NCBI GenBank assembly: GCA_018398765.1
Contig: JAHBMJ010000319.1
Coordinates: 1 to 50,115, forward strand
Length of the DNA: 50,115 nt
Direction of reading: 5' to 3'
Origin: Chromera velia
Lineage: Eukaryota; Sar; Chromeraceae
In this document: one piece after another, positions 780 through 45,723 of the stretch
How the letters are laid out: every line of letters begins with the position of its first letter
How positions within the stretch are numbered: the stretch's first letter is position 1
The notes under the pieces: model-generated
What the model was told of the DNA's origin: nothing
Database searches by the model: none
Seen by the model: only the letters and a program-made list of their open reading frames with translations
Translations under genes and position numbers: made by a program

Positions 780-1034
780 GACGCGCGGCCCGTCTGGAGT
801 TTTCTTTCCAATGCACTCATAAACATGCATGCACACCGCCGGGGCAAAAATTCAAGTGATGGTTTGCCAGGTTTGCCCATTCTGGTCCATGGACTCTCGT
901 CAAAAGAAAGTCTTCGATCATTGGTCACAAACAGCTCAGAAACAGATTCAAGGTCGAGACTGACAGTTTCGACTCATGCAAGCATGTTTTCTCTAAGCTC
1001 GGCCCGCGCGCGCGTCTCCATGCATGCAACATGC
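780..1034 (+). promoter_or_regulatory. Composite 5' element of the ankyrin gene (CGCG + TGCATGCA + GCAACATGC)
   Basis: CGCG-rich words occur at about 770-790 and 1003-1015. TGCATGCA lies at 826-833 and again at 1021-1028, where it is extended to TGCATGCAACATGC. The element sits roughly 210-470 bp ahead of the first ATG. The same three ingredients recur before most other genes in the window. TGCATGCA is a known ApiAP2 target in apicomplexans; a role in this organism is inferred. Confidence 0.5.
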
Positions 1035-1246
1035 GCGTTGAATTTGACTGACCTTCACAATTAATCAAAAGTCAATTTTGCGGAACCCTTGAATCTCGCA
1101 CCCCCAGACGCTTTCAGGTCACATTTGTGGATGGAAGGCGTTCTCAAGAGTCTGTCACATATATGTCCTTTTCCTGATTCCAGCACGGACAGGCCAAGCG
1201 TTGCACATCTGCATATATACATATACCCTAAGAAATATCTTTGGAG

Positions 1247-2702
1247 ATGGCAACAAGGCGCCGTGTAACAGTCCCATTTGATCTGCCTCCCATCATTCTG
1301 AGAAATGTGCGTCGGTTCAAACCAGTGTCACCGTCCTGCTTGCGGAATGCCGTTCGGGCGTTCATGGAGGGACGGGACGATGCAGGCAGAGACCTCCTCC
1401 TACTCTGCCGGGTAGGTTGTGAGGTCAACGCACTGACGAAGGTTCCCGAAGAGGAGAAACCCCCGCAGCTTCCCGGCACTTTGATTCCTGTAGAAAACTT
1501 TTCAGAGGCCGCCATTCACTTCGCAGTCCGCATAGACTCTGTGGAAACGGTGGAGAGGCTTTTGCTCTTCGGAGCTTTCCTCGAAAGGGAAGATTCTGTG
1601 GGGTTGACTCCTCTGATATTGGGGTCCGCAATGGGGCAGACTGCGGTGGTTCAGGCTCTGCTTAGATGGGGGGCGAATGCGAACCGTGCAGATGTCCGGT
1701 GCTCCATGCAGCGGACGCCCCTCATGTATGCAGCAGAGCGCGGCCACGCACCGGTTGCGAAGGCGTTAGTGGATGCGGGGGCAGAGGCTGAAGAGGTCAT
1801 CTACGGACACACGGTGCTTGCCTTTGCAGCCGCGGGGGTGCATCCGTCTGTGGTGTCCGTTCTCCTCGCCAGTGGTGCAGACGTGAACAGTGCAGACGAG
1901 GACGGAGAGACACCTCTCATGAAGGCTGCCCAGAGAGAGGCCCCACCTCAGTCTGGACACCCTGAAGTGGTCTCCCTGCTGTTGGCGGCCGGGGCTCCAG
2001 TAGATGCGGGGAACCGGGTCGGAAAGACGGGGTTGATGTTCGCCTCCATTGTTGGGAACGATGCGGTGGTGCGAGTGCTCCTGAAGGCAGGGGCGGATGT
2101 GAATCGTACGGATCGGGGGGGGGTTACAGCTTTGCGGTGGGCAGTGCACAGAGGGCATGCGAAGGTGGTGAAGACGTTCTTAGAAGCGGGTGCAGACGTG
2201 AATACCACAGACCGATCGGATGGCACAGTACTCCGGCTGGCGTCAACCATGGGGCAGACTGAGTTGGTTCGGGTTCTTCTTGGCGCCGGGGCCGATCCTG
2301 ACATAACCACCGCAGAGTCGTCCAGAGAAACAGCACTGATAGCAGCGTGATGTAGTGGAGCTTCTGCTTAAAGCGCATGCGGACGTTGATGCTGTCAGTG
2401 CCGATGGGCGCACAGCGCTGATGCAAGCAGCGTTGTTTGGACAGGAGGCCGCTGTCAAAGTTCTCCTCAGAGAAAAAGCGTCTGTCAACAAAACGGGGGA
2501 GTCTGGTGAGACTGCCCTGATGCTCGCTGCCTCACACGGCCGCGTGGGCATCCTGAGGATGCTGATCGAGGCAGGGGCAGAGCTGAACTGTGCCGACGAA
2601 AACGGGGTCACTGCTCTCATCTTGGCCTCTCAGCGCGGCCATACTGCAGCGGTGGACTTCCTTTCCGCAGCAGGAGCAAATTGGCAGGGGGAATTGTTCT
2701 AG
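1247..2702 (+). pseudogene. Intronless ankyrin-repeat protein gene, frame-broken near its 3' end
   Basis: An open frame from ATG 1247 (an upstream in-frame TTG at 1241 is ignored) runs to TGA 2348-2350. It encodes about 367 residues, with some nine ankyrin repeats after a ~70-aa non-repeat N-terminus. Recognisable repeat cores include TPLMYAAERGH, GADVNSADEDGETPLMKAA and VVRVLLKAGADVN. Ankyrin repeats continue without a gap in the +1 frame from about 2349 to TAG 2700-2702 (about 117 residues, three more repeats). At the junction, the five residues normally found between the TALxxAA helix and the VVxLLL helix are missing. A 14-bp deletion explains both the shift and the shortened repeat. No intron with proper borders fits. 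Ankyrin stacks bind other proteins; the partner is unknown. It is either a recent pseudogene, a truncated but working 367-aa protein, or a sequencing error. Confidence 0.75.
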
Positions 2703-3993
2703 GGCGGACAGAGAACGATCGCACTGTGGTCGCACAGTGACTCGCACTCCATCATGTCTAGTTGCTAGAGTTTGTTTTTGAAAGCTGAGACAGACAATCC
2801 GCTTTCTCACCTTGGAGTGGTCTGTGGTCAACTTTTCAAATTCACTTTTACAAGCATTGCATTGTGACTGCAGTGCAAGTCAGTGAGACTCGCATATAGC
2901 TTTTTGTTGTATAACCTTACAATGGGATAATATATAACCATACTGATCATTGGCCAATGGCTTAATCATAGTTCATGATATAGTGTCCCTAGTAATCTCT
3001 AGTAGTATCCACTTACTTCAAATATATGGGAGCAAGTTTGATCTTTTCAAAAAGGTCGAAATAAAAACTTATTGAAAAGAAATAAAAATATGTATAACGA
3101 TACATCTATTAATTTTACACTAAAATTTTACAATAATTTTTTTTCTTAGAGTCGGTAAATCAATCACTCCCTAGATCTGGTTCCTGTTTAGTAGTAGCAG
3201 TATCTATTATATCAGTCTATATCACTACATTAATTAAATTGATGACCATGCAGGTTTTACAAAGTACTATAAAGACTCTAGATAAAAACTAAACCTGGTT
3301 TACTTCATAGTCAAACTAGCAGTCAAATCAACAGTTTTATCAACCTTTGTTAGGTTCTAGGTTAAGTTATAACCCAGTCTTTAACCAGATCTGATTTAAT
3401 CTATTATAAATTTAAGTTAATCACCAAAAAGCATATATTCATATTATTCAATGCAACTATAATGTTTATATCTAAAATTGTCCAGACTCAAGCTGTCACT
3501 CAGCTTAGCCCAATTTAAACCTAGTAACCTATCTAGTAAACTATTCAACTAAATCGAATCAATAACTGACCTAGTAACTGATTTGGACCTCAAATAACAA
3601 AGATTTCTAAGTATTATACAATTTATTAGCCTGTATTAGGAACTTGCTTCATTTTATTAAATGTATATTATCTAGTGATTCTAGTCAAATTAAGTCTTAT
3701 TAGTCGACCTCAGCCAGTGGAATCCGCAGTCAGTAAAAGCTATAGAGAGATCGAATACCAGATCGAGAGACGATATACCTAGCTATATACATACGTATAT
3801 GCATCTGCCTGACGTAGCGCCCGTGGCGCGGAGTTATGATTTTTAGGGATACTTTATAAGTGTGCGCGGAAATTGCAGTAAGACACAATGTTCTATATGC
3901 TAGCCTCTATAAACTAGCCTACATGCTAAGATTCAGGGATGACGGCCTGTTCCGTATACATAACGTAGAGCAGCCTATGCCAAAACAGTACAC
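2703..3993. other. 3' flank and AT-rich, CpG-poor spacer
   Basis: After the ankyrin gene the sequence becomes strongly AT-rich from about 2870 to 3780, with many CTAG/TAGT words and almost no CpG. No open frame of note, RNA gene or terminal repeat is visible. Composition recovers around 3800. Confidence 0.6.
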
Positions 3994-4227
3994 ACCTAGG
4001 CGTATCACAGAAAAAAAAAATAATTTAAGCCTGTTCTCACTTAATTTTTTTTTTTTTGCCCGACGATGTTATGTGACAAACAACTGTTGTTCAAGTGTAC
4101 GTTGCATAACTGTTGTTTTGGTATTGTATAAGTGTTGCTTAGGCGTTGCGCAAAAAAATTAAAAAAAATAATTTAAACCAATTTTGGTTTACTTTTTTTT
4201 TTTTCTTTTGCTGTGATACGCCTAGGT
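3994..4227. mobile_element. MITE-like element with 17-bp terminal inverted repeats
   Basis: The left end ACCTAGGCGTATCACAG (3994-4010) is matched exactly, as reverse complement, by the right end (4211-4227). Inside the ends, A-rich and T-rich tracts and a shared TAATTTAA word are also roughly symmetric. The total is 234 bp with no coding capacity. ACAC lies next to both ends (left flank TACAC, right flank ACACAC) and could be a short target-site duplication. This is the structure of a small non-autonomous DNA transposon. The superfamily cannot be named from these ends alone. The perfect inverted repeats suggest a fairly recent insertion. Confidence 0.7.
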
Positions 4228-4484
4228 ACACACTTAATGATTGGCGGTGTACTGCGGTGTATGCACATTTTCGATCCACGTCACCCTTACACACACTTTT
4301 TCGCACAGAAGCACAAACAACATGGCTCTTTTGAGAAATAGTTTTAATTTGACCGACAATTTTCTGTTCGCAAACAAAACAGCTTTTACACACATCAGTC
4401 TCGATCACTCACAGACTTCTTCTCATGCCCATCATGCAAAGTTATTCATGCTGGCACGTACACATCCGGTTTGAATCTAATTTG

Positions 4485-5917
4485 CTACACGGGCCGCGGC
4501 AGCACGAGTGCCCCCCTTGCGAGTTCCTCAATCAAGTCCGCAAAAGATGTCTCCAGAAGTCTGCGGTTCCTCTCACTTGAGAGGACTGTCTGGAGGCCTC
4601 GGGAGAAGGCCTCAAAGACCTGCGCGTCAATTTCGGTGCATCGAGTTGGAGAAAGCAAATAAGTTGATGAATGCAGAATCAGTGAAGGTGTGCCAGATAG
4701 AATAAGTGCCTCAATGAATGAGAAAACAAAAGAGAAGAGGACCAGCGCCCAAATACACAGACGGCCATTCCAACACTTGGCATGTTCTGAATTCCAAAAA
4801 CAAAACGGACTCACTGACCTCACGAGCAGAGTACCTCAGTCCCCTTCTCTCCCGGGCATTCACAAGTTCCACCAGAGCTCCGAAGGCAGGCTGGTAGCGC
4901 GTCATCGAGATCCCTGCAGTCAGCGCCGTCTCTGTCAGACTCCTCAAACACCTCCCGATCTGTTCATTCAACTCGTCATCCAACTGCGCCCCTAGGGTTG
5001 GAGGCACGGTAGATCTTCCAAACGTCCGGAGGCCCCCTTCCCCTCTCGCCTTGCTGGAACGGCTCTGTGCCACCGCGACTTTCAACCCACCGACTGAGCT
5101 TCTTATACCGCCTTCCTGCTGGAGACCAATAAGTTGCATCGCTCGTGAGAGTCAGTTTGAAAGTGCTAGCACGTGATTGGGCGATCTGCACTGAATTCTC
5201 TAAGATGATTAAGAAGTTTCCAGAGGGGTCTCTCTCATAAGCACGCCAAAACACAGGGATGAAGAGAGGGACAATATCATGAGGAAATCAATACACGTCT
5301 TGATTCTACTCTTGGTTTTCAATGCAACATCTATGTAGACGGCTCTACATTTGTCCATGCAATGAAGCGACCACACCGACAGAGAGACAGAGAGCATCTT
5401 AGAACAATCCCCCCACCTGTCCTTCCTCAAGGGCCCCAGCCAGCACGCCAGAGAGTGCATTTAAGAAGTCCTCAGACCCCTTCGGGCTTTTTGAACTCCC
5501 ACTCGACTTCTGCAGCTGCCCTCTTTGAGAACGACCAGAACCGTCACCCCTGACAGCCCTCGGGTAACCCCTGTCTACTGTCACGGATTCAAACCGACTC
5601 TGATGGAGACGCTCCACAAATTCAACCGACCCCCCATTGACCACGTCCACAAAGCCCAGAGCCTCAAGGCCCTCACAGACCTTCGAGGCGTCAAACGCGG
5701 ACGACGACCCGCCGTCCCCTCCGTATACGAGCAGCGGGGTCTTCTTATCTGTGGGTAGACGGTACAGAATGTGAGAAGCCCGCTCTACGGGAATATTGAT
5801 TGACCCCGGAAGAGAAGAGTAACGGAAAATTTCCCAAGGTCGGGTGTCAAGGAGGAGAAGTCCGGCTTTCTGCAACTGTTGCGCAACTGCAACAGCTCCG
5901 GGTGCTTGTGTCTGCAT
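4485..5917 (-). CDS. Rhodanese-domain protein lacking the catalytic cysteine
   Basis: Modelled as three phase-0 exons: 5917-5417, 5118-4819 and 4619-4485 (TAG), giving about 311 residues. Residues ~18-105 fit a rhodanese homology domain. LLLLDTRPWEIF resembles the first strand and helix, the IPVERA segment follows, then a LLVYGG strand and a VVNGG turn. Active rhodaneses have Cys in the loop after the central strand (VYCxxGxRS); here the loop reads VYGGDGGSSS, so sulfur transfer is unlikely and a binding role is more plausible. After a Ser/Gly-rich linker, exons 2 and 3 encode a helical tail with no family I recognise. Donors are GTGGGG and GTCAGT. The exon 2 acceptor is the weakest choice; another at about 5181 opens a different frame. 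The start is the first ATG before the domain. The gene is divergent from the dynein-docking gene. Confidence 0.65.
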
Positions 5918-6627
5918 TCCGTTCACCACGAGTGCAATTTTTTTCACACAGGAGACTCTAGAAGGCAATGGCTTGCCTTTGAAACACCTGATCTTCGTGT
6001 CCGCACAATAGATGACGGACTGGCTCTGAAATATAGATATCCTCCATCTGAATGGGTGCTCCCTGTTCGTCCGACTGTCAGTGCATCTCGAAGTGTTGCT
6101 TCGATCATGCAACGCAACATGCAACACTCATGCATGTTGCGCCTATACGTGCGATACGGCTTTTGCGCACTTCATGAATGCATGCAGGCTCGCGCGCGTT
6201 TCGCGCGACGTGTTGAAATGTCTGCATGTATCGATCGATGTATATATATATATATATGCATGCATGAATTAATGGATTTAATTAATTGCATGCATGCAAT
6301 CATTGAATGATGCAATGAAAGCCTACTGGAACGAAGTCTCATGGGATGCCAGTCGTGAAAGGGACAAGCTGCAAAGCAGTCTTTGCAACTTTTCGCGCGT
6401 TCTGCCTCCAAATTGTAATACAGACAAAAGACTTGCGCAGAAGAGACAAACTTCGATCTTCACCAAGGTGGTGTTGTCCGTTCGCCAATCGAGACCTAAC
6501 GCTTGCTTCTCCTTCTCTGCAAGCGCTGGCAAGGTGACCCATCCTTACTAAGCGTCAGTTCTTGACCAGAAGGTGACCCCCTAGCTCTTTGTCTTCGCCC
6601 AGCCCCTCTGATCCATCTCATCACAAG
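5918..6627. promoter_or_regulatory. Shared upstream region between divergent rhodanese and ODAD1-type genes
   Basis: About 700 bp separates the two start codons. It holds GCAACATGC-type words and ATGCATG near 6105-6140, TGCATGCA near 6177, CGCGCG stretches at 6190-6215, ATCGATCGA near 6228-6236, a TA run (6240-6256) and more TGCATGCA copies at 6255-6300. It contains all components of the composite element. Function as a bidirectional promoter is inferred from position only. Confidence 0.5.
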
Positions 6628-13656: not shown

Positions 13657-13687
<31 letters not shown>

Positions 13688-16150: not shown

Positions 16151-16170
16151 GAGAAAACGCAAAGGCAATG

Positions 16171-17617: not shown

Positions 17618-17735
17618 TCCGGTTCCTCATTAACACTGATCGATCTCTTTTTCCGGCCTGCATCTCCACTTATGGGAGCTCTGCAGTTAGTCAGATGATG
17701 AGTAAGTGTGGAGTCCTACCCTGTGGCGCCGCTCT

Positions 17736-17886
17736 CTGGACCCTCGCATGCGCTATATCTGAATGAGCCCGCGTGCCGACGCCAGGCTCCGCCGCCGCGC
17801 TTTATTTTGTACGTGTCGTGCGCGTCGATCAAAATTGTTAAAATCGATCGAGTCTGACCTTCGTATTCAAGCATGCAACATGTTAC
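17736..17886. promoter_or_regulatory. Composite promoter-like element without a clear gene
   Basis: GC-rich sequence with GCATGCGC (17748), GCCGCCGCGC, GTGCGCGTCGATC, ATCGATCGAG (17843-17852) and GCATGCAACATG (17871-17882). The arrangement matches the elements upstream of firm genes. It could serve the small minus-strand frame ending at 17384 or an unseen plus-strand gene. Confidence 0.35.
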
Positions 17887-24100: not shown

Positions 24101-26825
24101 GGACAGCGATATGTCCCACAGTCACGGCAGAGGACTAAGGGGCGGGGCGGAGAGACGCCCTCTCCAGGGATCAGTTCTCACACACTCTGCTGCTTTTCTT
24201 GTTTTCCTCTCACCGTTTTCTTGTCATTTTCGATGCGGTCATCGCTCACGAACGGAGACGGGTGATACAAATATGAGATGGGCATGCTGCCGCAGTCACT
24301 GTGGCTTTTGACAGCAAAACGGTCCTTTGGAATACACAAATGATTCATTTTGTTTCACTCAAATCATATACAAGTTTTGGTTGTCTGACTTGAAGAGCCG
24401 AAGTCCCCTGCTGGAATGGCTGCTGCGACTGCTGTAGCTGCTGCAGCTGAGGCCTCCCTCGTTTCCCTCTGACCCCTCACCTTGTCACTGAAATGCCCTA
24501 CCCCTAGCCTTGCAAAGGGAAAGGAAAAAGTCCCCCAGAAATCTCAGTGCAAAACTAGATGAAATTCAAAAAGGTCTTTGTTTCCCCCCCCAGCACCTCA
24601 GTTGTCTCAGTCAGATCAAGAGGACCGAGAATTTTTTCCATGAGGTCTGATATCACTTGATACCATCTCTCTCAGAGCTTCTGTTTGTCGCTGCATGAGC
24701 TCTTCGTACGTCTCCTTCCCTCATCTTCCCTTCTTCTCCGACAGTAATGCACTCAAACTTTTCCCACGCTTGAGCCGTGCTGCCTCAGTCAAAGATCTTC
24801 CTTCTTTCACCTCTGTTCCCCCCCGATCCCCTCCCTTGTTTCCCCCCCTATCGTTAGCCGCCTACCGCTTCGAGTTTGAGATCCACTCTCTCTCGAGGGC
24901 CTGCCTGCTGTACAGAAACAGACGGCAGAAACGCTTGGCAACGTGAAGCTTCTCGTCAGGTATTTTGTCCCATTACAAGGCCAGACTGAGTCACTCTCAC
25001 TACCTGCATCCTTGTTCGCGTGCTCATGCTTGTGCTGCTGCTGTTCTATGACTGCTTCCTCATCCTAATTTGGAGTGGGGAGACAGAGGGGAACTATGGG
25101 AGGGGCAGAGGGGTGGGTGGATAGACGGGGAGTGAGGGACTCAGGGGAGGGGGGTAGAGGGCCTGGGCCAGCTCAGCCTAAGGACGAAGAAAGAAACGCA
25201 TCAAATTAGGAGGCTTGCTTCTGTTTCTCTTTTGTCTCCGGGGGTAGAGGGCCTGGGCCAGTTGAGAATAAAGAAAGAGATGTATCAAATTGGGAGGCTT
25301 GCTTCTGTTTCTCTTTTGTCTCGGGGGGTAGAGGGCCTGGGCCAGCTGAAGATGAAGAAAGAGACGCATCAAATTGGGATATTTGCTTCTGTTTCTCTTT
25401 TGTCTCCAGGGGTAGAGGACCTGGGCCACCTGAAGACGAAAAAAGAGACACATCAAATTGGGAGACTTGCTTCTGTTTCTCTTTTCTCTCCTTAGTTGTG
25501 ATGGCCCCTGCACATGCTGCTTCCACAGGTTCTTTGGCTCCTTGTAGAGCCTGTTGGCTCTCACCGTTTCCTGCAAACAGTAATAAGACATGCACAGATC
25601 GAAGGGCTTGCAATGGGGTCTGAAGGTAAGGATTGTTGTTACAGTAGGTAACATCCATGAAGGCACATACCTAGAACAAACTAAAACCAAACTAAAATCA
25701 GGCGAGCAGCGAAGGGAGTTGGCAGAAGCTTGCCTGACCGTGGTTACCGTTTGAGTGGGATCTGGATGAGTAAGAATAGAAGACGGATGTTGTTTCAAGA
25801 ATCTGTCATAACCATGTCCCGTCTCCCTTCGCTTTACCTCAATCAGCTCTGGAAGAAGAACGTCATGACGGAATTAATGATGATCGTTCAAATCAAGTTG
25901 TTCCTCCCCAAGTCGGCCCCCTCAATTCCTTCTAAGGCATCGATTCTTCAATGGCATCTCAAGACCGGGCCTGCATGAGGTACTCCTCTAACGCGAACTG
26001 TTGCTCCTGCCTGCAGGAAAGGGTGTTGCACGCCGATACACAAAAGGAGCCTTTGATCTTCTGGTCCGTCAATAAATTAAGAAGCCGTCACTCAAAGCTT
26101 CATTGTTGTAAATACCTGTGCTTACACACCCTAGCTGTAGTGCTTCTATGTGGGATCAACAAAAAAAGAGACTGCACTCCTGATTCTGGCTTAAGTTGAT
26201 CACTGAATAGATTTATATCCCACAGCTAGGTCAAACTGAAATGTCTTTTTCTCTTTCAGCTCCAAAAAGTGTACATACATGAAGCTGATTTTGTTATCCA
26301 TCTCAGCGAATGCGAAAAAGATTTTTTAGGAGACTTGAGATCTTTGATGATCTTTAAAAGTTATTTATCAAGCCTATCGCGCTTTCAAAATTTTAAATTG
26401 AGGTCCTCACCCTATTTATCGATGATACAAAACCACCATTCCCCCACTCCAGATTCGAGGTAAGAGAAGACACACTTGGTCATCCAAAGCTCTTTCCCTT
26501 GAGTTAATTTAAGGAGAATTGATCGCTAAGCAACACCGAGATAAGAAAAGCGCCTCACTAAGATTTGGTCTGCACTTCCATCCTGAAGAGCGTCCGGAAA
26601 ATGTATGACGCATGCCTACTGATTTTCGTAAAATCTAGCAAAATCGGTTAAATGCTACAGACGGAATATCCTACCGACGTCCTCCACTCGAGCGTCTCCA
26701 CCAATCTCCAACAGTGAATTAAGAATCTTTGTCAGACAACAGATGACAACAGTTGCATGGAAGTCTGATCGATCGAGAAATATCGAGAATGCATGCAATG
26801 CATCATTGCAAAACAAAAAGCCCAT
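21169..26825 (-). CDS. Uncharacterised multi-exon gene (possibly two), structure incomplete
   Basis: Several protein-like minus segments lie in one orientation, some bounded by good splice sites. They are: a possible first exon 26825-26675 (ATG 26825, MGFLFCNDALHAF, donor GTAGGA); a Lys/Gln/Ser-rich repeat exon about 25575-25207; a segment ending at 23136 with donor GTGAGT; a Pro/Gln linker followed by about 80 well-behaved residues, about 22905-22589; a basic segment ending at 22162 with donor GTCAGT (VEFGEYKTYVQNYKIHSG); and a final segment to TGA 21169-21171. Four of these frames share one phase over 2.6 kb, and in-frame TAG codons fall at three of the breaks, so exon borders are unsettled. 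No domain is recognised. The putative 5' end faces the SHMT gene across a GC-rich promoter. It could be one gene, two genes, or partly decayed. Confidence 0.4.
25150..25491 (-). repeat. 84-bp minisatellite encoding a 28-aa repeat
   Basis: Four units start at 25150, 25240, 25324 and 25408; the first interval is 90 bp, the others 84 bp. In the minus frame open to 25206 each unit reads KEKQKQxSQFDxSL followed by a Ser/Pro/Gly stretch ending GPGPLPxET. The 84-bp period is a multiple of three and the frame is kept through three units. The first unit on the plus coordinate (last in translation) has a CAA to TAA change. Confidence 0.8.
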
Positions 26826-26940
26826 TTTTCGGCGCAGCCCGCGCGAATGCATGGCCGCGCGCGGGCCCGGCCCGCGAGTGCATGGGTCGCGCGGGCGGCC
26901 CTATAGGGGCGGCCGTGGGCCGCGCCCTTATAGTGAGCTT
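26755..26940. promoter_or_regulatory. GC-rich bidirectional promoter-like element upstream of SHMT
   Basis: GATCGATCGAG (26767-26777) and ATGCATGCAATGCAT (26788-26802) are followed by about 110 bp of CGCG/GGCC-rich DNA with ATGCATGG and a second TGCATGG (26830-26935). It is about 200-380 bp before the SHMT ATG and overlaps the possible start of the minus-strand gene. Confidence 0.5.
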
Positions 26941-32590: not shown

Positions 32591-32599
32591 GCTTGTCAA

Positions 32600-32933
32600 A
32601 GATCCGCGCGCGGACCGAGCGCGCGGATCGATGCAATTAAGGAACGAAGGATGGACGGATGCATGCCTTTCTGTGCATGCATGCATGGAAATACATGGAA
32701 AGACGGACACACGCGCATGAAAGCGTGAACGCATGACAAAACATCTTGCTTCGATCGCACTGCATGTGAGAAAACGAAGAAGAGAAGAGGAACCTTTGCA
32801 CTTGCGTAGCCGCATTGACTGTGGATTGGGAAGATCTCAAGATCGAGATTGACTGTGTGCTGCCACGAAAGTTTGCTCTGCTCGATCACAGCATCAACGC
32901 CACCGCACGATTCCCTCACAACTCTCTACCGGA
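32600..32933 (+). promoter_or_regulatory. Composite upstream element and 5' leader of the kinase-like gene
   Basis: CGCGCGG and GAGCGCGCGGATCGATG occur at 32606-32633. GGATGCATGCC and TGTGCATGCATGCATGG follow at 32657-32688, so all three composite components fall within ~85 bp. The remaining ~245 bp to ATG 32934 is probably promoter plus 5' untranslated leader. Confidence 0.5.
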
Positions 32934-33453
32934 ATGTCGTTCTCAAAAGTTCTCCTCGGCGCATTTGCCGGAGGCTTCGTCCTCACCACCGCCACTCACA
33001 ACTTCCTGGGATCACGTTCCAGTGCGCTCGTGCCCTACGGTGTGTCCCAAGCAGAGGCCTCTGAGCTCGACTCGATGCCCGTGCTGCTGGAGAGGATGTC
33101 TGCCAGTGGGAACCCTCAACAGTGTTCCGGCAAATACCTCGAGGGCCTCGACATGGGCGACTGGAAAGCGGAACAATACTTGGGGGGTGGCATGTTCGGC
33201 AAAGTGTACAAGGCGAAAATCAAGAAGAGCTCACGACCGAAAGATGACAACACGGGAATAGACTGCGGATACCTCGGCAAATGGGGTCGGTCAGTCAGTG
33301 TAGCCATCGATCGATCGAGCGCGTGCATGCATGTCAGCCAGGCAAGGTGCACGGGAAAATAGAGTTTCGAAGGTGGATTCCATGTATGCGTGCTCCTGTG
33401 TGCGGCAGCTGCTTTCTGACTCTGCATGGCTAACTTCTGCACTTCAGACTTCA

Positions 33454-33490
<37 letters not shown>

Positions 33491-34389: not shown

Positions 34390-34422
<33 letters not shown>

Positions 34423-36900: not shown

Positions 36901-37336
36901 TGCAAGCCTAAACAATAGATAATAATCGGGCATCATGGAAGAGGGTGTGCTGGAGAAATGTTGCATGTAGGATAGCCTGGATAGGCAGACAGGAAAAAAA
37001 AAGTTGGGATCGAAAGTTGTTTGTCATAGTGTTTGTCCAGGCTACCAAGCGGCCGCATCGCCGGAAACTCTGACGCAGATCAAGTGAGCACTCATCCATA
37101 CAGGGTGAACAATTGGCAAGCTAGAGGACAGATGAGGACAGCCTGGGTGGATCACTGAGAGACATCCAATGGAAGGAAAGAAGAGCTGATCTCAGCACCT
37201 CGCTGCACTGTGTGAGCATGTGAGCCTAATGTGAAGTCTCAGTGTGTGGCATGCTCTAGGGCAGGCTTTCTGCTGGGCTTGCCATGCCGCTGTCTGTTGT
37301 GCATGGAACTTGCATTCAAGTGGCAGTCCGTCCACC
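36901..37336. other. 3' flank of the first 243-aa paralogue
   Basis: Mixed composition. It probably contains the 3' untranslated region of the minus-strand gene that ends at 37337. No other feature is seen. Confidence 0.5.
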
Positions 37337-38068
37337 TCACTCTTCGCCTTCCTCCTCCTCACCATCCTCATCCTCCTCGTCTTCCGGAGCTGCGAGGTCC
37401 ATCAGCTCGCCGAAGAGCTTTTTCGACATTTCATCTCCGCAGACTCCTTTTCCAACCAGAGCCTTGCTCGCCTTCAGACACACAGTGACGCACACGATCC
37501 TTGCAAGCATCCCGGGGGACATCTGACGCGCCGGGATCTTCAGCTGCCTGGCCCACTCCTTTGCCTCCTTCACATCGTCAAAACCGGTTGCCTCGTCTTC
37601 GATGCCGAAGGGATCGTCGTGGCGGTCGATGTCTTCAAACGGACCTTGTCCAAGAAAAGCAAGATCGAATTCCCCTTTGCAGTAGCCTTCGTCGTCCTCA
37701 TTGCGCAGAGTAAAAGTGAAGTTCTGTCCAACGACAGAGAACTCCACCTCCACTGTGTCCTCGGACATATTCCAGGACACATCTTGGTTGCTTATGTATT
37801 CCTTCGCACTTTTGACTTCCACTGCTCCCACTATCTTGCGGAGAAGCACTAGCTCTACCGCCTCGAATCGCTCTCTGAGCTCTGCACAGATCTCTTCAAC
37901 TTTTGGGTCCTCTCCCTCCTCCCGCGCCCTCTTTTCAACTTCCTCAAGAAGCTGACGGAGTTTTTTGGCGGTCCGGCCTAGGGTGCCCTTTGGAATGCTA
38001 GCTGCGACTGTGCTGGCATCCTTATTGAGGACAGTGTCCAGCTCTGCGGATTGCCGTTTGGGGGCCAT
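37337..38068 (-). CDS. Intronless unknown protein, paralogue A (243 aa)
   Basis: ATG 38068 to stop 37337. The frame is open further upstream, but the next copy (44268-45005) starts at the equivalent Met, so MAPKRQSAE is taken as the start. Features: a basic N-terminal tip, a charged helical segment with KKLRQLLEEVEKR (~35-47), a middle part with alternating hydrophobic residues and FDLAFLGQGPFEDIDR, a very conserved block WARQLKIPARQMSPG plus ARIVCVTVCLKAS (~180-210), and an acidic tail of Asp/Glu ending EEEEGEE. The acidic tail would suit a nuclear or chaperone-like role, but nothing identifies one. No membrane segment or signal peptide is seen. I know no family for it. TGCATGCA motifs lie 140-310 bp upstream. 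Confidence 0.8.
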   Translation of the reverse strand: MAPKRQSAELDTVLNKDASTVAASIPKGTLGRTAKKLRQLLEEVEKRAREEGEDPKVEEICAELRERFEAVELVLLRKIVGAVEVKSAKEYISNQDVSWNMSEDTVEVEFSVVGQNFTFTLRNEDDEGYCKGEFDLAFLGQGPFEDIDRHDDPFGIEDEATGFDDVKEAKEWARQLKIPARQMSPGMLARIVCVTVCLKASKALVGKGVCGDEMSKKLFGELMDLAAPEDEEDEDGEEEEGEE

Positions 38069-38204
38069 GATCCTTTCAAATTGGTCAGTATTACGGATCT
38101 GAATATCCGGGTTGCACTGTTGCAGCGCACAACGGAACAAAAAAGATGATTCGATGAGCGCCCACGTCAATTCAATGATTTTGGAGGTCAAGAGGCAGTA
38201 CACA

Positions 38205-38375
38205 GTCATATGTGCATGCAAATAGTGCGACAAACAACGCAGATGGCTCGAAATTCGAGAATTTCGAGTCCCACCTTGTCTCTCCTTGACTTTGAGTGTC
38301 GATCGGCGTGCATGCACCACATGCACATTGAAGCTTGGCTTAAGTGCATGCAACTGTGCAACATGCGTGTAACAG
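38205..38375 (-). promoter_or_regulatory. Upstream motif cluster of paralogue A
   Basis: GTGCATGCAAAT (~38212), GTGCATGCACCACATGCAC (~38308-38327), and AAGTGCATGCAAC followed by GCAACATGCGTG (~38341-38369). GTCGATCGGCG lies at about 38298. This is similar in content to the cluster upstream of paralogue B, with less CGCG. Confidence 0.45.
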
Positions 38376-38393
38376 TGAACTGTATGTATATAC

Positions 38394-40688
38394 TGTATAT
38401 TTCACATACTTTGTTCACCGGAGTTTCGGGTCCTCCACTTAAACATACCAAGTTTGAAAAAACTCCAGATAAATCTATGTAAAGAGCCTGCCCAAAAGTG
38501 AGGGGGCACTCATGCATTGCAGCCTACAAGAAGCGTGCACTGCCTCAGTCACAGCTCAGGATTCCTCAATCTAACCTAGAGAGAGAAAAGAGTCGTCAGC
38601 CTCCTAGGTAGACGGTCTGGTGGGTGCCCTGCAGAAAGAAGAAAGCGACACACATGGACAGAGGGGCATGCAGGGAGACGGATGGGCAAATCTTTCAGTT
38701 CTTATCACTCCAATAAAAATTTGATAGAAAAGGCTGTTCTATGGACCCCCCCGACCTCAAAGATGTAATCAGCAACTTTGGAGACCCCCATTTGGTTACT
38801 TGAGCTGTGACCCAAGATCTGCCCCTGCCTTGACTTTGCACGATCTCTCCAGCCAGAAAAGAGACGGCAGACAAATGCATGCACGGGCGGCCCCGGAAGG
38901 CAGTGTGAAAGTGGGCAAAGTATGGGTGAATCTGGTATCTAAAGAAAAATTCATATGGGAGGTCATAGAAGGAGGCAGGAGGCAGGGACGGCATATGAGC
39001 AGGAAAGGGTCTCATGGTATACAGAAAACAAAAAACGCCATCTCTGGCCAGAAAAGCATGGCACAGCCACACAGAGCAGAATGAAAGATATAGAGGGGGG
39101 GGCACGTCTAGCGCTTTGCTGACCTGCCTTCTTCTCTCACCACAGAGAAGAGGAGAGATGCCGAGGGAGTGCACCTGCAGAGGGCATACATGCACTAATA
39201 TATACACTGAATGACAGGCCCCTGCCGCTAGTAAATTCAGCCAAGGAAGAGAAACAAACGAGCACACCGTATATTTCACCATACTTTGCCCACCAAGGTT
39301 TCGGGTCCTCCACCTAAACATACCAAGTTTGAAAAAACTTCAGATAAATCCATGTAAAGAGCCTGCCCAAAAGTGAGGGGGCACTCATGCATTGCAGCCT
39401 ATAAGAAGCGTGCACTGCCCCAGTCACAGCTCAAGATTCCTCAATCTAACCTAGAGAGAGAAAAGAGTCGTCAGCCTCCTGGGTGGACGGTCTGGTGGGT
39501 GCCCTGCAAAAAGAAGAAAGCGACACATATAGACAGAGGGGCATGCAGGGAGACGGATGGGCAAATCTTTTAGTTCTTATCACTCCAATAAAAATTTGAT
39601 AGAAAAGGCTGTTCTATGGACCCCCCCGACCTCAAAGATGTAATCAGCAACTTTGGAGACCCCCATTTGGTCACTTGAGCTGTGACCCAAGATCTCCCCC
39701 TGCCTCGACTTTGCACGATCTCTCCAGCCAGAAAAGAGACGGCAGACAAATGCATGCACGGGCGGCCCCGGAAGGCAGTGTGAAAGTGGGCAAAGTATGG
39801 GTAAATCTAGTATCTAAAGAAAAATTCATATGGGAAGTCATAGAAGGAGGCAGGAGGCAGGGACGGCATATGAGCAGGAAAGGGTCTCATGGTATACAGA
39901 AAACAAAAAACGCCATCTCTGGCCAGAAAAGCATGGCACAGCCACACAGAGCAGAATGAAAGATATAGAGGGGGGGGCACGTCTAGCGCTTTGCTGACCT
40001 GCCTTCTTCTCTCACCACAGAGAAGAGGAGAGATGCCGAGGGAGTGCACCTGCAGAGGGCATACATGCACTAATATATACACTGAATGACAGGCCCCTGC
40101 CGCTAGTAAATTCAGCCAAGGAAGAGAAACAAACGAGCACACCCTTTATTTCATCATACTTTGCCCACCAAGGTTTCGGGTCCTCCACCTAAACATACCA
40201 AGTTTGAAAAAACTTCAGATAAATCCATGTAAAGAGCCTGCCCAAAAGTGAGGGGGCACTCATGCATTGCAGCCTATAAGAAGCGTGCACTGCCCCAGTC
40301 ACAGCTCAAGATTCCTCAATCTAACCTAGAGAGAGAAAAGAGTCGTCAGCCTCCTGGGTGGACGGTCTGGTGGGTGCCCTGCAAAAAGAAGAAAGCGACA
40401 CATATAGACAGAGGGGCATGCAGGGAGACGGATGGGCAAATCTTTTAGTTCTTATCACTCCAATAAAAATTTGATAGAAAAGGCTGTTCTATGGACCCCC
40501 CCGACCTCAAAGATGTAATCAGCAACTTTGGAGACCCCCATTTGGTCACTTGAGCTGTGACCCAAGATCTCCCCCTGCCTCGACTTTGCACGATCTCTCC
40601 AGCCAGAAAAGAGACGGCAGACAAATGCATGCACGGGCGGCCCCGGAAGGCAGTGTAAAAGTGGGCAAAGTATGGGTGAATCTGGTAT
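38394..40688. repeat. 875-bp tandem repeat array, about 2.6 copies
   Basis: Units begin at about 38394, 39269 and 40144, exactly 875 bp apart. The third stops at about 40688, inside the unit, where it runs into unrelated TATATA sequence. Copies are nearly identical, with scattered substitutions. Copies 2 and 3 share most differences from copy 1, so they are the younger pair. Each unit carries AAATGCATGCACGGGCGGCC, a promoter-like combination. Both strands have open frames: about 80-94 codons on plus without an ATG at the start, and up to 208 on minus in copy 1. No known domain appears and reading frames on both strands are conserved only as expected from recency. I see no terminal repeats of a mobile element. 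Confidence 0.9.
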
Positions 40689-40831
40689 ATATATGCCACG
40701 CGAGGGGAGCGTTGCATGAACAACACTTAGCAACAACAACACTTGCAAGCTTCCACTAAATGTTGCGACGGCTAAGTTGATGTTATATATATATAGGCTG
40801 ACCTTGATTCCGAAAATGACGCCACGATTGC

Positions 40832-42599
40832 ATGAAAGACATGAAAGGTTCAGCGTTAGCATGTCATTTTGGTTGTCGGGAAGTCATACTATTGCAAAGG
40901 AGCAGAAATTTTGCAGGACTTTTGGACGTTCTCGCACGCGTCTTCGGCACAGCCCCGTCCGAGGCACGTCTCCTCTGCCACATTGAAAGACAAGGCCTCA
41001 ATGGCGGCCCACTCGAGTCTCTTCCCCCCGCACAACGGGGCCTTTCTGCTGTTCCTCTGGAACGTCTTCGCGGACGGCGGGCAGACTGCCTACCTGATGT
41101 CAGGCTGATGCAGAGAAGGAATTTGCAGAGACAGAAGTGCATGCAGCTCTTTGAAGAAGGGGGGGTGTAGGGATTCTTTCCAAAGCCCAACGTTCTCCGA
41201 CTTTTTCTGATTGTCTTTGTCGTCAATCTGTTGGTCTCTCTGTGTATTCTCTCTCTCAACATTGCAGTGCACAGGGAGATGGAAGAGAGTGGTGAGACAA
41301 TTTCAAAGGCAACACATGCATGAATATATATATATACGCGCATGGAGAGGAGATGGAGGAACATTCGGAAAGGATGTCTTCTCCGTCCCCCTTTTGTATT
41401 GGTCGAGGATGCTCTTTCTCTTGCGGTCACCTCTTTCAATCTCTCCCTTCAACAGAAAGAGGAGGGAAGGAACACCAACCCTTATTACTTCTACCATTTT
41501 CTCCTCATATGGCTTTCTGTCACTATGCAGCTGACCAATTGTTGTATTGTTGTCGATGGTTTGGGGACACAAAGTCGCCTAACACGTCGCTCGTCTGACA
41601 GTGGCGGGGTGTCGAAGAAGGAGCCGCAGGGTGAGACCCTTGACTCTTGAGTAGGAATGGGCATGACATAGCCATGAGAGTGAAGAGAAGAGGAAGGGGG
41701 CAGAGAAAGCAGCGCTGTTGATGCTGCAGTGGGACGTCGCTTTGAAGATTGAGGCCCTCTGTCAGGACGCTTCGTCTTCCCGGAGTTACTATGCGCAGTA
41801 ACAAAACCCTTGAAGAGGCCCCCATTACATCCCATTACCTTCTCCCTCACCGTTCGGTTGATTTCTCGGGAGGTTCGTGCTGGAATTGGCTGTTTACAGA
41901 TTTTTCTGTGGGATCTTCGTCCTCTTTGTGCAACTGGAGTGCTGAACGTGTTTCTCCCAAAGGATTCTAACCCAGGCTTCCATGCAGGATGTTGCATGGT
42001 CTAAGCCACCCTGCAGGGCAGACCGTTTTCTGCACCCTTTCGCCTCTTTTATTCTGGGAATGCGTCGGGAAGCGCAGAGCGAACCTCTGGCGACCTCTGG
42101 CGGCAATACTGGGGATTCCGAGTTATGGCAATGTCCTATTGAAGACGTGCCGTCTCTCCTCTTCAGATTGTCGCTGGTGGTGCTGGAGATTGTCATTTCT
42201 TTCTTTCCTTCCAGCTAGCTTGCTGTGGGATGCAGTCCTCAGGGGCTATCCCACAATCTGAATTCAGTCTCTACCGTTGTCTGTTCTTGCCTTCAGGCGA
42301 TAGAGCGCGAACGAAGAATGAGATGGGATGTGGTGGAGGCAGGTTTGGGTGGGTCTCTGTTGGTCGGAAGGCGAAAGAAAGAGCGGCAGAAAACATCACA
42401 TAGATCTAGAAAACAGGTGCCGCACAGGTACAGAAGGAAAAGGGCTAACGACAGTTCGAGACAGAGTGACCAGATTTCTGTTGATTCTGGGGGACCAAGG
42501 GAGGGACCTTTTTCCATCAATGCCCTCTCAACCAGCGATAGCCTGAAAGTAGTTGAGAATGTGGCGCGGAAAACAGATCCGATTCGATGCAGTTTGTAA
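40832..42599 (+). CDS. Candidate multi-exon hypothetical gene
   Basis: Best-supported parts: a first frame from ATG 40832 (open to 41170; includes LLDVLARVFGTAPSEARLL and an Arg/Leu-rich stretch), an exon-like segment 41531-41630 (acceptor ATGCAG, donor GTGAGA; CCIVVDGLGTQSR), and a terminal exon 42297-42599 (acceptor CTTCAG; AIERERRMRWDVVEAGLGG, then Lys/Arg- and Ser-rich, ending TAA). The exons between 41630 and 42297 are not resolved, and the phase of 41630 does not match 42297 directly. A minus-strand open frame (41491-41997, 168 aa, basic) competes in the middle. No domain is recognised. A TATATATATATA tract lies 40 bp upstream of the ATG. Confidence 0.4.
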
Positions 42600-44267
42600 C
42601 GAACGCCAACTTTGTGAAAATGCAGAGTTTCTCGACATTTTGCTGTTTCCCCCATGCTTTAAATTCCTGATTTACTGGTTTTCTTGTAGATCGACGGGCG
42701 TTTGGAAATGTGTATATGCATATTGGCATGCATGTGTATGTGAGTTGTCTGTACCCTCGCTTTTCTCGCGATGAAATTATGTAGCAGTTGATGTCAGCAC
42801 AAGCGGGAATGAGGGAGTGAGGGTATTAATATTCACCCAGGAGAGCGGCCAGGCTATTTGAACCGGGCTATCGTATGAAGCGAGACACGGCATCACTGAA
42901 GTCTTGCTTTGCCTTTTTTATGTCAATTCATTTTTTTCGTTTCAATGCAGTGAGTTTATTACCTAGAGATCGGCTTTCTTATACACTGGCACTTTGAATC
43001 TAATTTTGACTAGAATTTTGACCAGTTTTTTTTGCAGTTTTTAAATTTTAGTTAACAATTCAGATTCTCTGAATACTTTTAAAGAAAGGTGATTCTTGAA
43101 TTAAGTTTTTTCTTCCTTTGAATTTTATACTGCTTTAGAATTTATTATCAACTTTTAAATAAGTTAAATTGCATTTATGATTGTTCATTTCTAAAAATAG
43201 AAAATTGAAATGAAAATCTACTCGCAAACTTGAACAAACCAAGGTTGCATGCCATGCCCCATAGTTAGTCAGAGCTAGCCAGAGCCCAAATGCTAGCTCA
43301 AGTGCACCGGCTTTAACTGCCTCAAATTAAATGTACTATATCTATAGTACTAGGCCCATAACTAGAGAAATTATAGGTGCCAGTGCCTTTTCATATAAAG
43401 TATTAGTCTAGGTATTAGTACGAACACTAGCAGTCTAGCACCAACAATTTAAATAATACAGTGTTCAAAGGATATTATTATTAGATCATCATTAGATCAT
43501 GAAGTGCATGGGAATTCCGCATTTGTTTGTGTCTGAAATGTTCAACGTTGTTTAAGCTAAATATAGTTCCCGATAGATTAATAGTTGGATATAATTATGT
43601 GCGTATCAAAATTATGGACACTGCATGCATAAGAATCCACCAACAGAATGAAAAGACATGCAAAAGAAAAAAAAGCCACACAAAAGCGGTTGCAATGAAT
43701 GTAGATCATGCGGTGGAAAGGAAAAACAATGAAAGAATAAAAGACGGAAAGACAAACAGTATACACAGTACAGAGGACAGGCGGGAATCGATCCCCGCCG
43801 CGGGATGCATGCGGGCAGTCACTTCACTTATTAAAGGCAAGAAGCTACACAAAACTGTCGACAGGAGAAGTTGGGGGGCAAGCCTCGCCAACCGAGAGAC
43901 CTTCATGAGGACTCTCGTTGACTATGATGGAACGACACGTGGTGGTGGGAATTTTCAAGAAAATACAGTTTGAATCCAGTCTGAGAGTGTTCCTTCTGGG
44001 GTGTCACGCCCCTTCTATAGAATGCTTCCAGCTAGGCTTCCAGACTGAAGAGATAGAGTGAGCATACCTGTGAAAAGTTCTGGTAAAGAGGCATCAAGGG
44101 AAAAGAAAAGGTGTGTTGGTGGCGTGTCAAGCAGAGCAGCTGGGAGAGCATGTCAGTCTGATTTGAAAACTCACTGTATGGCAGTGTCTTTCTCTTGTTG
44201 GGCTGTCCATTCAATGTCCCTGTCTCTTGTAATAACACCGATCATTCACTACGGCACTCTGTCTAGC
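42600..44267. other. Intergenic DNA with AT-rich block
   Basis: 42950-43560 is AT-rich and CpG-poor. A plus frame at 43527-43973 is Lys/Asn-rich and has no family. Near 43778-43815 there is a GC-rich palindrome around GATCGAT followed by CGCGGGATGCATGCGGG, again the composite motif set. The remainder to 44267 is probably 3' flank of paralogue B. Confidence 0.45.
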
Positions 44268-45005
44268 TCACTTCTTCCCCTCCTCCTCCTCAAAGTCCAA
44301 ATCCTCAGCTTCTTCTGGAGTGGCAAAGTGCATGAGCTCGTTGAAGAATTTTTTCGACATCTCATCTCCGCAGAGCCCTTTTGCTTCCAGAACCTGGCTC
44401 GCCTTCAGACACACAGTGACGCACACGATCCTTGCAAGCATCCCGGGGGACATCTGACGTGCCGGGATCTTCAGCTGTTTGGCCCACTCCTTTGCCTCCG
44501 TCACATCGCCAAAATCCTTCACATACTCAGATTCTTCGATACCGAACGGATCGTTCCGCCGATCGATATTGTCGTAGTTGCCCTCGCCCAGAAACGCGAG
44601 ATCAAAATACCCGTCGCAAATGCACTGATAGTTTGTATTGCAGAGATAAAAACGGAACTCCTCCCCGAAAAGAGACCACTCCACCTCGACTGTCTCCTCG
44701 TTGTGCTTGTATTCTTGCATGCTGATGTACTCCTTGGCACTTCTGATGTTCACTGCATTGACGATCTTGCGAAAGATCATCATTTGGTCCTTGGTGGAGG
44801 TGAATCTGTCCCTTAGCTCCGCACATATTGCTTCCACCATGGGATCCTCCCCCTCCTCTCGTGATCTCTTTTCAACTGCCTCAAGAATTTGACGCAGCTT
44901 TTTTGCGCTCTGGTCGAGCGAACCCTTCGGCAGGCCAGCTGCGAATGTGACGGGATCCTTACTGAGTAGACTGTCCTGCTCAGCGGATCGCCTTTTGGGT
45001 GCCAT
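44268..45005 (-). CDS. Intronless unknown protein, paralogue B (245 aa)
   Basis: ATG 45005 to stop 44268. It aligns end to end with paralogue A: MAPKRRSAEQD at the start, PKGSLDQSAKKLRQILEAVE, FDLAFLGEGNYDNIDRRND, the block WAKQLKIPARQMSPG plus ARIVCVTVCLKAS, GDEMSKKFFNELMHFA, and an acidic end (EEEEGKK). The centre is the most divergent part and contains extra Cys/Tyr/Asn. The orientation is the same as A, 6.2 kb away. It has no introns, unlike most genes here, which may mean an ancestral retrocopy followed by DNA duplication, or simply an intronless family. The function is unknown. The upstream region is shared with the ankyrin gene at 45724. Confidence 0.8.
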   Translation of the reverse strand: MAPKRRSAEQDSLLSKDPVTFAAGLPKGSLDQSAKKLRQILEAVEKRSREEGEDPMVEAICAELRDRFTSTKDQMMIFRKIVNAVNIRSAKEYISMQEYKHNEETVEVEWSLFGEEFRFYLCNTNYQCICDGYFDLAFLGEGNYDNIDRRNDPFGIEESEYVKDFGDVTEAKEWAKQLKIPARQMSPGMLARIVCVTVCLKASQVLEAKGLCGDEMSKKFFNELMHFATPEEAEDLDFEEEEGKK

Positions 45006-45723
45006 GGTCTTTCAGTTTCAACGGGTGCAGATGGCCAGCCGCGCAAGCTCGCTTCAGAGTCTTGATGTATATATGTAAACACAGGATCCAATTCAGCTGT
45101 ATATATATATATATATAGAAATTCAGCACAGACCGTTAGTTCGAAGTCGTGCTTGATGAGGTAGTGCGAAACGCAAGTGCTTTTTTGTCCTCTCTGCTTG
45201 CCTCCCGTGGATCTCTGACCGAAAGGTTCTGTAGTTCCCTGCATATATACCTGCGTGCGCTGAATCATCAGAATGCATGACAGCAACACATTCATGAAGT
45301 TGCGCTGATGCATGCAACACGCAACACTTTCGATCACGCGCGTGAACAACATGCGTGCACACACTTTGAGTGCATGTTTCATGTGAGCAACATGCACTTC
45401 CTGGTCCGACAAAGGACCAGAGAGACACTAAAGAACTTCATGAGCCGCGCGCGTTGCGGATCGATGCAACATGCATGCAGCACTGAGCCTGACCTTTTTT
45501 TGCAGCGCACTGCGAGTCTGCGGATCTGATCGATTCAGACGAAGGTGTCAGCTCTCTACACCAGACCAGCATCAAATACCAGCGCACCATTCCCGTCGTC
45601 CTGGCAGAATCTGCAAAACCGAAAGCCCCGCACGCAATTCGAAGTATATATTTACTTCGTACATATATAGACTGCCTGCCAGATGTCACTGCACGAAGTG
45701 CTGCACGCTGAGCAACGGGAACG
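45006..45723. promoter_or_regulatory. Shared upstream region between paralogue B and the exon-modular ankyrin gene
   Basis: 718 bp separate the start codons. Motifs include a TA run (45101-45116), TGATGCATGCAACACGCAAC (~45305-45324), GATCACGCGCGTG (~45330), CAACATGCGTGCAC (~45347), and CCGCGCGCGTTGCGGATCGATGCAACATGCATGCAG (~45445-45480), where all three components are fused within 40 bp. Bidirectional promoter function is inferred from position. Confidence 0.5.

What the first reader, a model, noticed from the sequence alone, without database searches (positions are those of the whole stretch)
780..45480. Recurring three-part 5' element: CGCGCG + GATCGAT + TGCATGCA/GCAACATGC
The same motif set appears at 780-1034, 6105-6300, 17740-17886, 26755-26940, 32600-32690, 38205-38375, 43778-43815 and 45300-45480. 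Most of these lie 100-500 bp before a modelled start codon. At 45445-45480 and 32606-32688 the parts sit within 40-85 bp. TGCATGCA is an ApiAP2 target in Plasmodium and Cryptosporidium (established); the coupling to CGCGCG and GATCGAT as a promoter module is my inference.
Basis: partly seen in the sequence, partly recalled or inferred. Interest (0 to 1): 0.7.

Follow-up and report, generated by a model that had tools for sequence, protein, structure and literature searches.

The report
Clustered promoter words in an alga
The recurring motifs are real and tend to sit a few hundred bases before genes, but they form a loose set of promoter words in CpG-rich gene starts, not a fixed three-part switch.

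Summary
The window is a whole contig of a 178 Mb photosynthetic eukaryote with many ApiAP2-type domains, most consistent with Chromera velia (inferred). The motifs exist, but all three exact words occur at only 4 of the 8 cited places; a further triple (35318-35493) lies in a 3' flank. In the window CGCGCG (12/16 sites), TGCATGCA (12/24) and GCAACATG (6/8) fall in the 9.4% modelled as 5' flank; GATCGAT is weaker (5/17). Genome-wide, TGCATGCA and CGCGCG lie within 30 bp 5.8 times more often than 300-330 bp apart, TGCATGCA-GATCGAT 2.5 times, CGCGCG-GATCGAT 1.7 times. At 24 gene starts chosen without the motifs, CGCGCG is 10.6-fold enriched, CATGCA 1.75-fold (LHC genes only), GATCGAT about 3-fold on six sites, TGCATGCA not significantly; 1 of 24 has all three. 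Best reading: CpG-rich promoters with a loose lexicon that includes a CATGCA element like that of Toxoplasma promoters. What binds it is not shown.

The parts
712..1034 (+). motif cluster A: CGCGCG at 3 merged sites, TGCATGCA x2, GCAACATGC; upstream of an ankyrin-repeat gene (ATG 1247)
   Evidence: sites; Ank; 5' flank
6105..6400 (.). motif cluster B: all three words plus GCAACATGC on both strands; between a rhodanese-like gene (- strand, ATG near 5917-5919) and a + strand ORF (ATG 6628), i.e. a divergent 5'-5' region
17638..17882 (.). orphan group: GATCGAT/ATCGATC and GCATGCAACATG; no CGCGCG, no TGCATGCA; no gene modelled nearby
26755..26895 (+). motif cluster D: all three words; upstream of a serine hydroxymethyltransferase gene (ATG about 27134)
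32605..32690 (+). motif cluster E: all three words within 85 bp; upstream of a modelled + strand gene (ATG about 32934; kinase-like by eye; no Pfam hit for its two long ORFs)
33306..33331 (.). ATCGATCGATCGAG + TGCATGCA inside the presumed first intron of the same gene (counter-example to strictly 5' location)
   Evidence: intron by eye
38205..38375 (-). cluster H: TGCATGCA x3, GCAACATGC; no CGCGCG, no GATCGAT; upstream of paralogue A (- strand, ATG 38068)
43778..43815 (.). ATCGATC and TGCATGC only; 3' of paralogue B; ARAGORN found no tRNA in the window
45270..45540 (-). cluster I: all three words plus GCAACATGC; upstream of paralogue B (- strand, ATG 45005); upstream sequence not convincingly alignable with paralogue A's
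38405..41030 (.). tandem repeat of 875-bp period (about three units, ends approximate) that accounts for three TGCATGCA copies (38876, 39751, 40626)

Best explanation
The sites are parts of gene promoters. In this genome the few hundred bases before start codons are CpG-rich (CpG o/e near 1, at the same G+C as elsewhere) and carry a loose set of short, mostly palindromic words: CGCGCG and related GC words, CCCGGAAA, and the CATGCA core, sometimes doubled as TGCATGCA. They sit mainly at -200 to -500 from the ATG, cluster within tens of bases of each other without fixed order or spacing, and turn over quickly between paralogues. Shown: location, clustering, lack of a fixed grammar. Inferred: they are binding sites in an open promoter region, with CATGCA/TGCATGCA read by an ApiAP2-type protein as in apicomplexans, and CGCGCG either a binding site or a mark of CpG-protected open chromatin.
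For: Window: 12/16 CGCGCG, 12/24 TGCATGCA, 6/8 GCAACATG and 5/17 GATCGAT sites in 4.7 kb of modelled 5' flank, against 1, 3, 0 and 2 in 4.4 kb of 3' flank; of six microsatellite control words the largest bias is TGGA 4/15 (p 0.046). Independent starts (14 LHC and 10 housekeeping genes, chosen by protein, not motif): CGCGCG 22 sites in 13/24, 15.3 against 1.4 per 10 kb in random contigs, in 100-bp bins from -600 to 0: 0,3,5,10,4,0; CCGGAAAG 13 sites in 11/24, 9.0 against 0.7; CATGCA 42 against 24.0 expected, 28 of 42 at -200 to -400; GATCGAT 6 against 1.9; none of six control words enriched. Among 2027 6-mers CGCGCG ranks 2nd and CATGCA 19th; CCCGGAAA is first of 9972 8-mers; promoter CpG o/e 1.01 against 0.71 at GC 0.495 against 0.492. 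Genome-wide near/far pairs: TGCATGCA-CGCGCG 3357/574, TGCATGCA-GATCGAT 1337/531, CGCGCG-GATCGAT 539/320. Nine window clusters share with each other or with L001-L068 only patches of 20-64 bp. Toxoplasma has a gCATGCa motif in 44% of TSS windows (PMC7854901, passages).
Against: In the 10 housekeeping genes alone CATGCA (12 against 10.0) and TGCATGCA (2 against 1.6) are not enriched; over all 24, TGCATGCA is 7 against 3.7 (P 0.086) and ranks 2947 of 9972 8-mers. AT-rich words such as AAAAAT also rank high at these promoters. A triple occurs in a 3' flank (35318-35493) and a pair in a presumed intron (33306-33331). Anchors are ATGs, not transcription starts, and were modelled by me. Six of the LHC genes share an N-terminus, and the tubulin, H3, H4 and HSP70 genes are paralogues, so sites are not fully independent. 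The random background is 69 kb and itself contains promoters. No expression, chromatin or binding data were available.
Confidence: 0.62

Rival explanations
1. CpG-island by-product: promoters are protected from CpG loss (by lack of methylation), so CpG words such as CGCGCG and GATCGAT survive there passively and nothing reads them; only CATGCA and CCCGGAAA would be true sites.
For: Promoter CpG o/e 1.01 against 0.71 in random contigs at equal GC; several CpG-rich 6-mers (CCCGCG, GGCCCG, CCGCGC) are enriched with CGCGCG. Window 5' flanks 0.94 against 0.65-0.79 in the other classes.
Against: CGCGCG is 29 observed against 4.8 expected from an order-2 model trained on the promoters themselves, so CpG content alone does not give the count. 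TGCATGCA, which has no CpG, is the word most tightly coupled to CGCGCG of those tested.
Confidence: 0.25
2. Microsatellite noise: the three words are just (CG)n, (GATC)n and (TGCA)n fragments in low-complexity intergenic DNA.
For: Most classes of tandem tetranucleotide words are over-represented in this genome; the ATCG and ATGC classes are among many. Some tandem words pair too: TGCATGCA with TGGA (7 against 2.68, p 0.016), TGGA with AATG, ACTG with AATG, AC with AG in L001-L050; GATCGAT with AATG (3 of 9 against 0.46, p 0.006) and AC with AG in random contigs.
Against: Other tandem words (TGGA, ACTG, ACAG, AATG, AC, AG) show little or no promoter bias and none pairs with CGCGCG or GATCGAT in the window.
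Confidence: 0.08
3. One reading: a coupled three-part promoter module CGCGCG + GATCGAT + TGCATGCA/GCAACATGC.
For: Four cited places hold all three words; three-way co-occurrence around GATCGAT 6/17 against 0.07 expected at 100 bp; L049 (an LHC promoter) has all three.
Against: 1 of 24 independent promoters has all three; CGCGCG-GATCGAT near/far is only 1.7, and 9 of the near places listed are one repeat family; no spacing preference for TGCATGCA-CGCGCG; GCAACA is not a general promoter word.
Confidence: 0.05

Closest known systems
Toxoplasma gondii gCATGCa promoter motif (44% of TSS windows, most concentrated about 82 nt upstream; PMC7854901) and the TRP2-like TgAP2X-7 motif [C/T/G]GCATGCA[G/C/A][C/T/G][G/A] (PMC12482157)
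   Same: CATGCA core, upstream of genes, in unrelated genes
   Different: Here the core is only 1.75-fold enriched over 24 promoters and not in the housekeeping subset; TGCATGCA travels with CGCGCG; distance to TSS unknown; no trans factor identified
Plasmodium PF14_0633 / AP2-Sp site TGCATGCA (PMC2965767)
   Same: Same octamer; the genome encodes many AP2 domains, and the two searched match chain 3igm (PF14_0633) weakly (E 9e-4 and 1e-4)
   Different: Stage-specific regulon in a parasite; of the DNA-contact residues of PF14_0633 (recalled: N72, R74, R88, S90) only the R88 equivalent is kept in L004 (L003 by eye)
CpG-island promoters of animals and plants (recalled)
   Same: CpG o/e near 1 at promoters against 0.7 elsewhere
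   Different: G+C itself is not raised; methylation in this organism untested

Membership tests
Toxoplasma-type gCATGCa promoter element | CATGCA core enriched upstream of genes | tested here: met
   42 sites against 24.0 expected over 24 promoters, 17/24 genes; met in LHC14 (30 against 14.0), not met in HK10 (12 against 10.0)
Toxoplasma-type gCATGCa promoter element | Narrow positional peak relative to the transcription start | not testable with these tools
   No TSS data; relative to ATG 28 of 42 sites lie at -200 to -400
ApiAP2 TGCATGCA (PF14_0633/AP2-Sp) site | An AP2 domain keeping the base-contacting residues of PF14_0633 | tested here: inconclusive
   30 of 56 AP2 hits were translated and read by eye; N-x-R at the contact place in L029 only, with an insertion later in the domain; L004 keeps only the R88 equivalent. 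Contact residues recalled, not from a call; 26 domains not read
ApiAP2 TGCATGCA (PF14_0633/AP2-Sp) site | Full octamer enriched at promoters | tested here: inconclusive
   Window 12/24 in 5' flank; 24 independent promoters 7 against 3.7, P 0.086
CpG-island promoter | CpG o/e raised at promoters | tested here: met
   1.01 against 0.71
CpG-island promoter | Unmethylated while the rest of the genome is methylated | not testable with these tools
   No methylation data
Dispersed repeat or transposon end | Clusters share a common sequence beyond the short words | tested here: not met
   blastn of 9 clusters against the window and L001-L068: only 20-64 bp patches
Three-part module as proposed | All three words together at most promoters that carry any | tested here: not met
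   1 of 24 promoters

The most novel reading that the evidence does not exclude
A free-living photosynthetic relative of the Apicomplexa already uses a CATGCA/TGCATGCA promoter word of the kind found at many Toxoplasma promoters, embedded in CpG-preserved promoters with CGCGCG and a CCCGGAAA word; the apicomplexan GCATGC promoter code would then predate parasitism.
Probability: 0.35. Interest if true: 0.6.

Novelty: new member of a known kind. Interest (0 to 1): 0.42.

Why it matters
No promoter map of this lineage turned up in the searches made here (listings only, 25 of 204 papers shown and 9 of 11, plus passages of the genome paper). If the words are read by proteins, they give testable promoter anatomy for the nearest photosynthetic relatives of malaria parasites and Toxoplasma (if the organism is Chromera), and help date the GCATGC promoter word relative to the origin of parasitism.

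Tried and rejected
Rejected: raw over-representation as evidence (tandem words in general are over-represented); a common repeat family; a tRNA or a known RNA family in the window (none found). Base-level footprint between the paralogue promoters: the coding parts align, the upstream parts hardly do, though both carry TGCATGCA and TGCAACA. Hexamer coding score trained on 67.5 kb of long ORFs: useful but insensitive. Naming the organism by PDB light-harvesting matches failed: no near-identical chain.

Weak points of my own tests: the window 5'/3' classes were drawn by me after reading the finding, with start coordinates off by 0-3 bases. L051 and L055 were looked at because of their motifs; they entered the word count but not the independent tests. 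Of the 20 LHC loci held, 8 had a usable start by my reading. Of the 10 LHC-hit loci fetched (L063, L065, L067, L068) were dropped for lack of a clear start, although L068 had a possible one. Of 45 matches, I used 10 starts.
Full report
What the window is. The window is an entire contig (C318, 50115 bp) of a eukaryotic genome of 177.8 Mb in 4040 contigs. The genome gives 56 AP2-domain hits and 58 chlorophyll-binding (LHC) hits, both lower bounds. Two AP2 domains searched against solved structures match chains named AP2IX-6 and AP2VIIb-2 (Toxoplasma-style names, recalled) and, weakly, Plasmodium PF14_0633. Size, fragmentation and gene content fit Chromera velia CCMP2878 (193.66 Mb, 5953 scaffolds; PMC4501334, passages seen), but I found no identity proof. 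The name is an inference.

Check of the observation. All three exact words (either strand) occur at 6105-6300, 26755-26940, 32600-32690 and 45300-45480; the other four cited places lack one or two. A further triple at 35318-35493 was not listed. Three TGCATGCA copies come from a tandem repeat of 875-bp period.

Chance. All three words are self-repeating or palindromic words, and most such words are over-represented here: the tandem tetranucleotide classes ATCG (16.9-fold), AGCT (11.7), ATCC (10.1) and ATGC (8.7) lead in the window. So raw counts are no evidence. Co-clustering is. With circular shifts in the window, CGCGCG lies within 100 bp of TGCATGCA in 11 of 16 cases (1.3 expected), CGCGCG near GATCGAT in 7 of 16 (1.04), and GATCGAT near TGCATGCA in 7 of 17 (1.36). 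Of eight other words, only (AT)n paired with the TGCATGCA and GCAACATGC tracks at p below 0.05, and AC with AG. In loci L001-L050 (137 kb unique, gene-biased) CGCGCG-TGCATGCA was 5 of 33 against 1.04 (p 0.017), CGCGCG-GATCGAT 4 of 33 against 0.86 (p 0.02), GATCGAT-TGCATGCA 2 of 21 against 0.76 (p 0.18). Controls paired there too: TGCATGCA-TGGA (7 against 2.68, p 0.016), TGGA-AATG, ACTG-AATG and AC-AG. In eight random contig starts (69 kb of readable DNA) CGCGCG-TGCATGCA was 3 of 10 against 0.43 at 100 bp (p 0.013; at 250 bp p 0.11), CGCGCG-GATCGAT 0 of 10, and the control AATG paired with GATCGAT (3 of 9 against 0.46, p 0.006). The window is about 1.8 to 2.6 times richer in the three words than the random contigs (sites against those), so it is not typical.

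Genome-wide coupling. I compared pairs 0-30 bp apart with the same pairs 300-330 bp apart, both directions: TGCATGCA-CGCGCG 1552+1805 against 276+298 (5.8-fold); TGCATGCA-GATCGAT 742+595 against 291+240 (2.5-fold); CGCGCG-GATCGAT 300+239 against 180+140 (1.7-fold), where 9 of the near places listed are one repeat family. The far counts for TGCATGCA-CGCGCG (276 and 298) are near the independence expectation per direction (355 from random contigs, 432 from all DNA then fetched). In the 100 near places listed the gap is flat from 0 to 30 (16, 14, 21, 14, 18 in bins of five and 17 in the last of six), so there is no fixed spacing. The intended control pair TGGATGGA-CGCGCG did not complete.

Location in the window. 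With starts modelled from Pfam hits (ankyrin, rhodanese, SHMT), a paralogous gene pair and two ORF-based starts, 4707 bp are 5' flank. They hold 12 of 16 CGCGCG sites, 12 of 24 TGCATGCA, 6 of 8 GCAACATG and 5 of 17 GATCGAT; 4403 bp of 3' flank hold 1, 3, 0 and 2. Of six microsatellite control words, TGGA reached 4 of 15 (p 0.046) and the other five p 0.66 or more; an (AT)n word was also enriched, 7 of 20. I drew these classes after reading the finding, so this is not a blind test.

Independent test. I took 24 start codons chosen by protein and not by motif: 14 LHC genes with a signal-peptide start and 10 housekeeping genes (alpha-tubulin 2, H3 3, H4 2, HSP70 2, EF1A 1). In 600 bp upstream, against random contigs: CGCGCG 22 sites in 13 of 24, 15.3 against 1.4 per 10 kb (2.1 expected, Poisson P 1e-15); CCGGAAAG 13 sites in 11 of 24, 9.0 against 0.7 (P 1e-10); CATGCA 42 sites in 17 of 24 against 24.0 expected (P 5e-4); GATCGAT 6 in 4 of 24 against 1.9 (P 0.012); TGCATGCA 7 in 6 of 24 against 3.7 (P 0.086); TGCAACA 3 against 2.9; GTCTCC 22 against 16.0 (P 0.09); none of six control words enriched. 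Positions in 100-bp bins from -600 to 0: CGCGCG 0,3,5,10,4,0; CATGCA 3,7,12,16,3,1; CCGGAAAG 0,3,4,5,1,0. The LHC set carries the CATGCA signal (30 against 14.0); the housekeeping set does not (12 against 10.0). Among 2027 6-mers CGCGCG ranks second and CATGCA 19th, GATCGA 185th, GCAACA 681st; among 9972 8-mers CCCGGAAA is first (13 in 10 of 24, 0.7 expected) and TGCATGCA 2947th; AT-rich words such as AAAAAT rank high too. Promoter CpG o/e is 1.01 against 0.71 at equal G+C. These P values treat sites as independent; paralogues in both sets make them too small.

What it most likely is. CpG-preserved promoter regions carrying a loose lexicon: GC words such as CGCGCG, CCCGGAAA, and CATGCA, sometimes doubled to TGCATGCA. 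The words cluster but have no fixed number or spacing, and in the paralogue pair (ATGs at 38068 and 45005) the upstream sequence has become hardly alignable while words of the set remain on both sides. Location and clustering are shown; that proteins read the words is inferred. CGCGCG exceeds an order-2 model trained on the promoters themselves (29 against 4.8), so it is not merely CpG content, but passive survival of CpG words in unmethylated promoters remains a serious rival.

Comparison with what is known. A gCATGCa motif lies in 44% of Toxoplasma TSS windows, most concentrated about 82 nt upstream (PMC7854901, passages); TgAP2X-7 likely binds a GCATGCA motif (PMC12482157, abstract and passages); GCATGC is called a general feature of Toxoplasma promoters (PMC10470533, passages); PF14_0633 is given the motif TGCATGCA (PMC2965767, passages). 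The element here resembles these. Membership is not shown: the octamer is not significantly enriched at the independent promoters, and the DNA-contact residues of PF14_0633 (recalled) are mostly not kept in the AP2 domains that I compared. Searches for Chromera with TGCATGCA, with ApiAP2 and motif terms, with cis-regulatory, and with transcription start site listed no paper whose title or abstract start reports promoter words in Chromera. Of the papers listed there I opened two (PMC7854901, PMC2965767); the genome paper was reached by its DOI. Subscription journals are mostly missing from that library.

Verdict. Real and promoter-associated, but not a three-part module.

Noticed in passing
L033, L034, L035, L037, L039, L040, L041, L049, L059, L060, L061, L062, L064, L066 (LHC promoters): GTCTCC (often CCGTCTCC) occurs within 600 bp upstream in all 14 of 14 LHC genes with a modelled start, in 12 of 14 at -200 to -150 from the ATG; it is not enriched in the 10 housekeeping promoters (3 of 10). 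Possible LHC-specific core promoter element; six of the 14 genes share an N-terminus.
   Followed up: partly
promoters of L035, L037, L059, L060, L064, L066 and of L069, L070, L074, L076, L078: CCCGGAAA / CCGGAAAG are the most promoter-specific 8-mers found (13 sites each, in 10 and 11 of 24 promoters, against 0.7 and 1.1 expected).
   Followed up: partly
L072, L073, L075 (two H3 genes, one H4 gene): A shared block upstream: AAATTATATATAGG... ...GCCCTATATATAATTTTC, then GATTCGACGTTGGAAGGAAATGACGGG (by eye); looks like a histone-specific promoter block.
   Followed up: no
window 37337-38068 and 44268-45005 (- strand): Two paralogous single open frames without a Pfam hit, with an acidic C-terminal stretch by eye; upstream sequences hardly alignable.
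   Followed up: no
window 1247-2703: The ankyrin-repeat frame ends near 2350 and seems to resume in another frame (by eye): an intron, an assembly error or a pseudogene.
   Followed up: no
G000 C3, C89, C331, C453, C480, C485, C587: A dispersed repeat containing CGCGCGCATTCAGCACCAGCCAGTTCAGATCGAT and near variants adds 9 of the places listed for the CGCGCG-GATCGAT pair.
   Followed up: no
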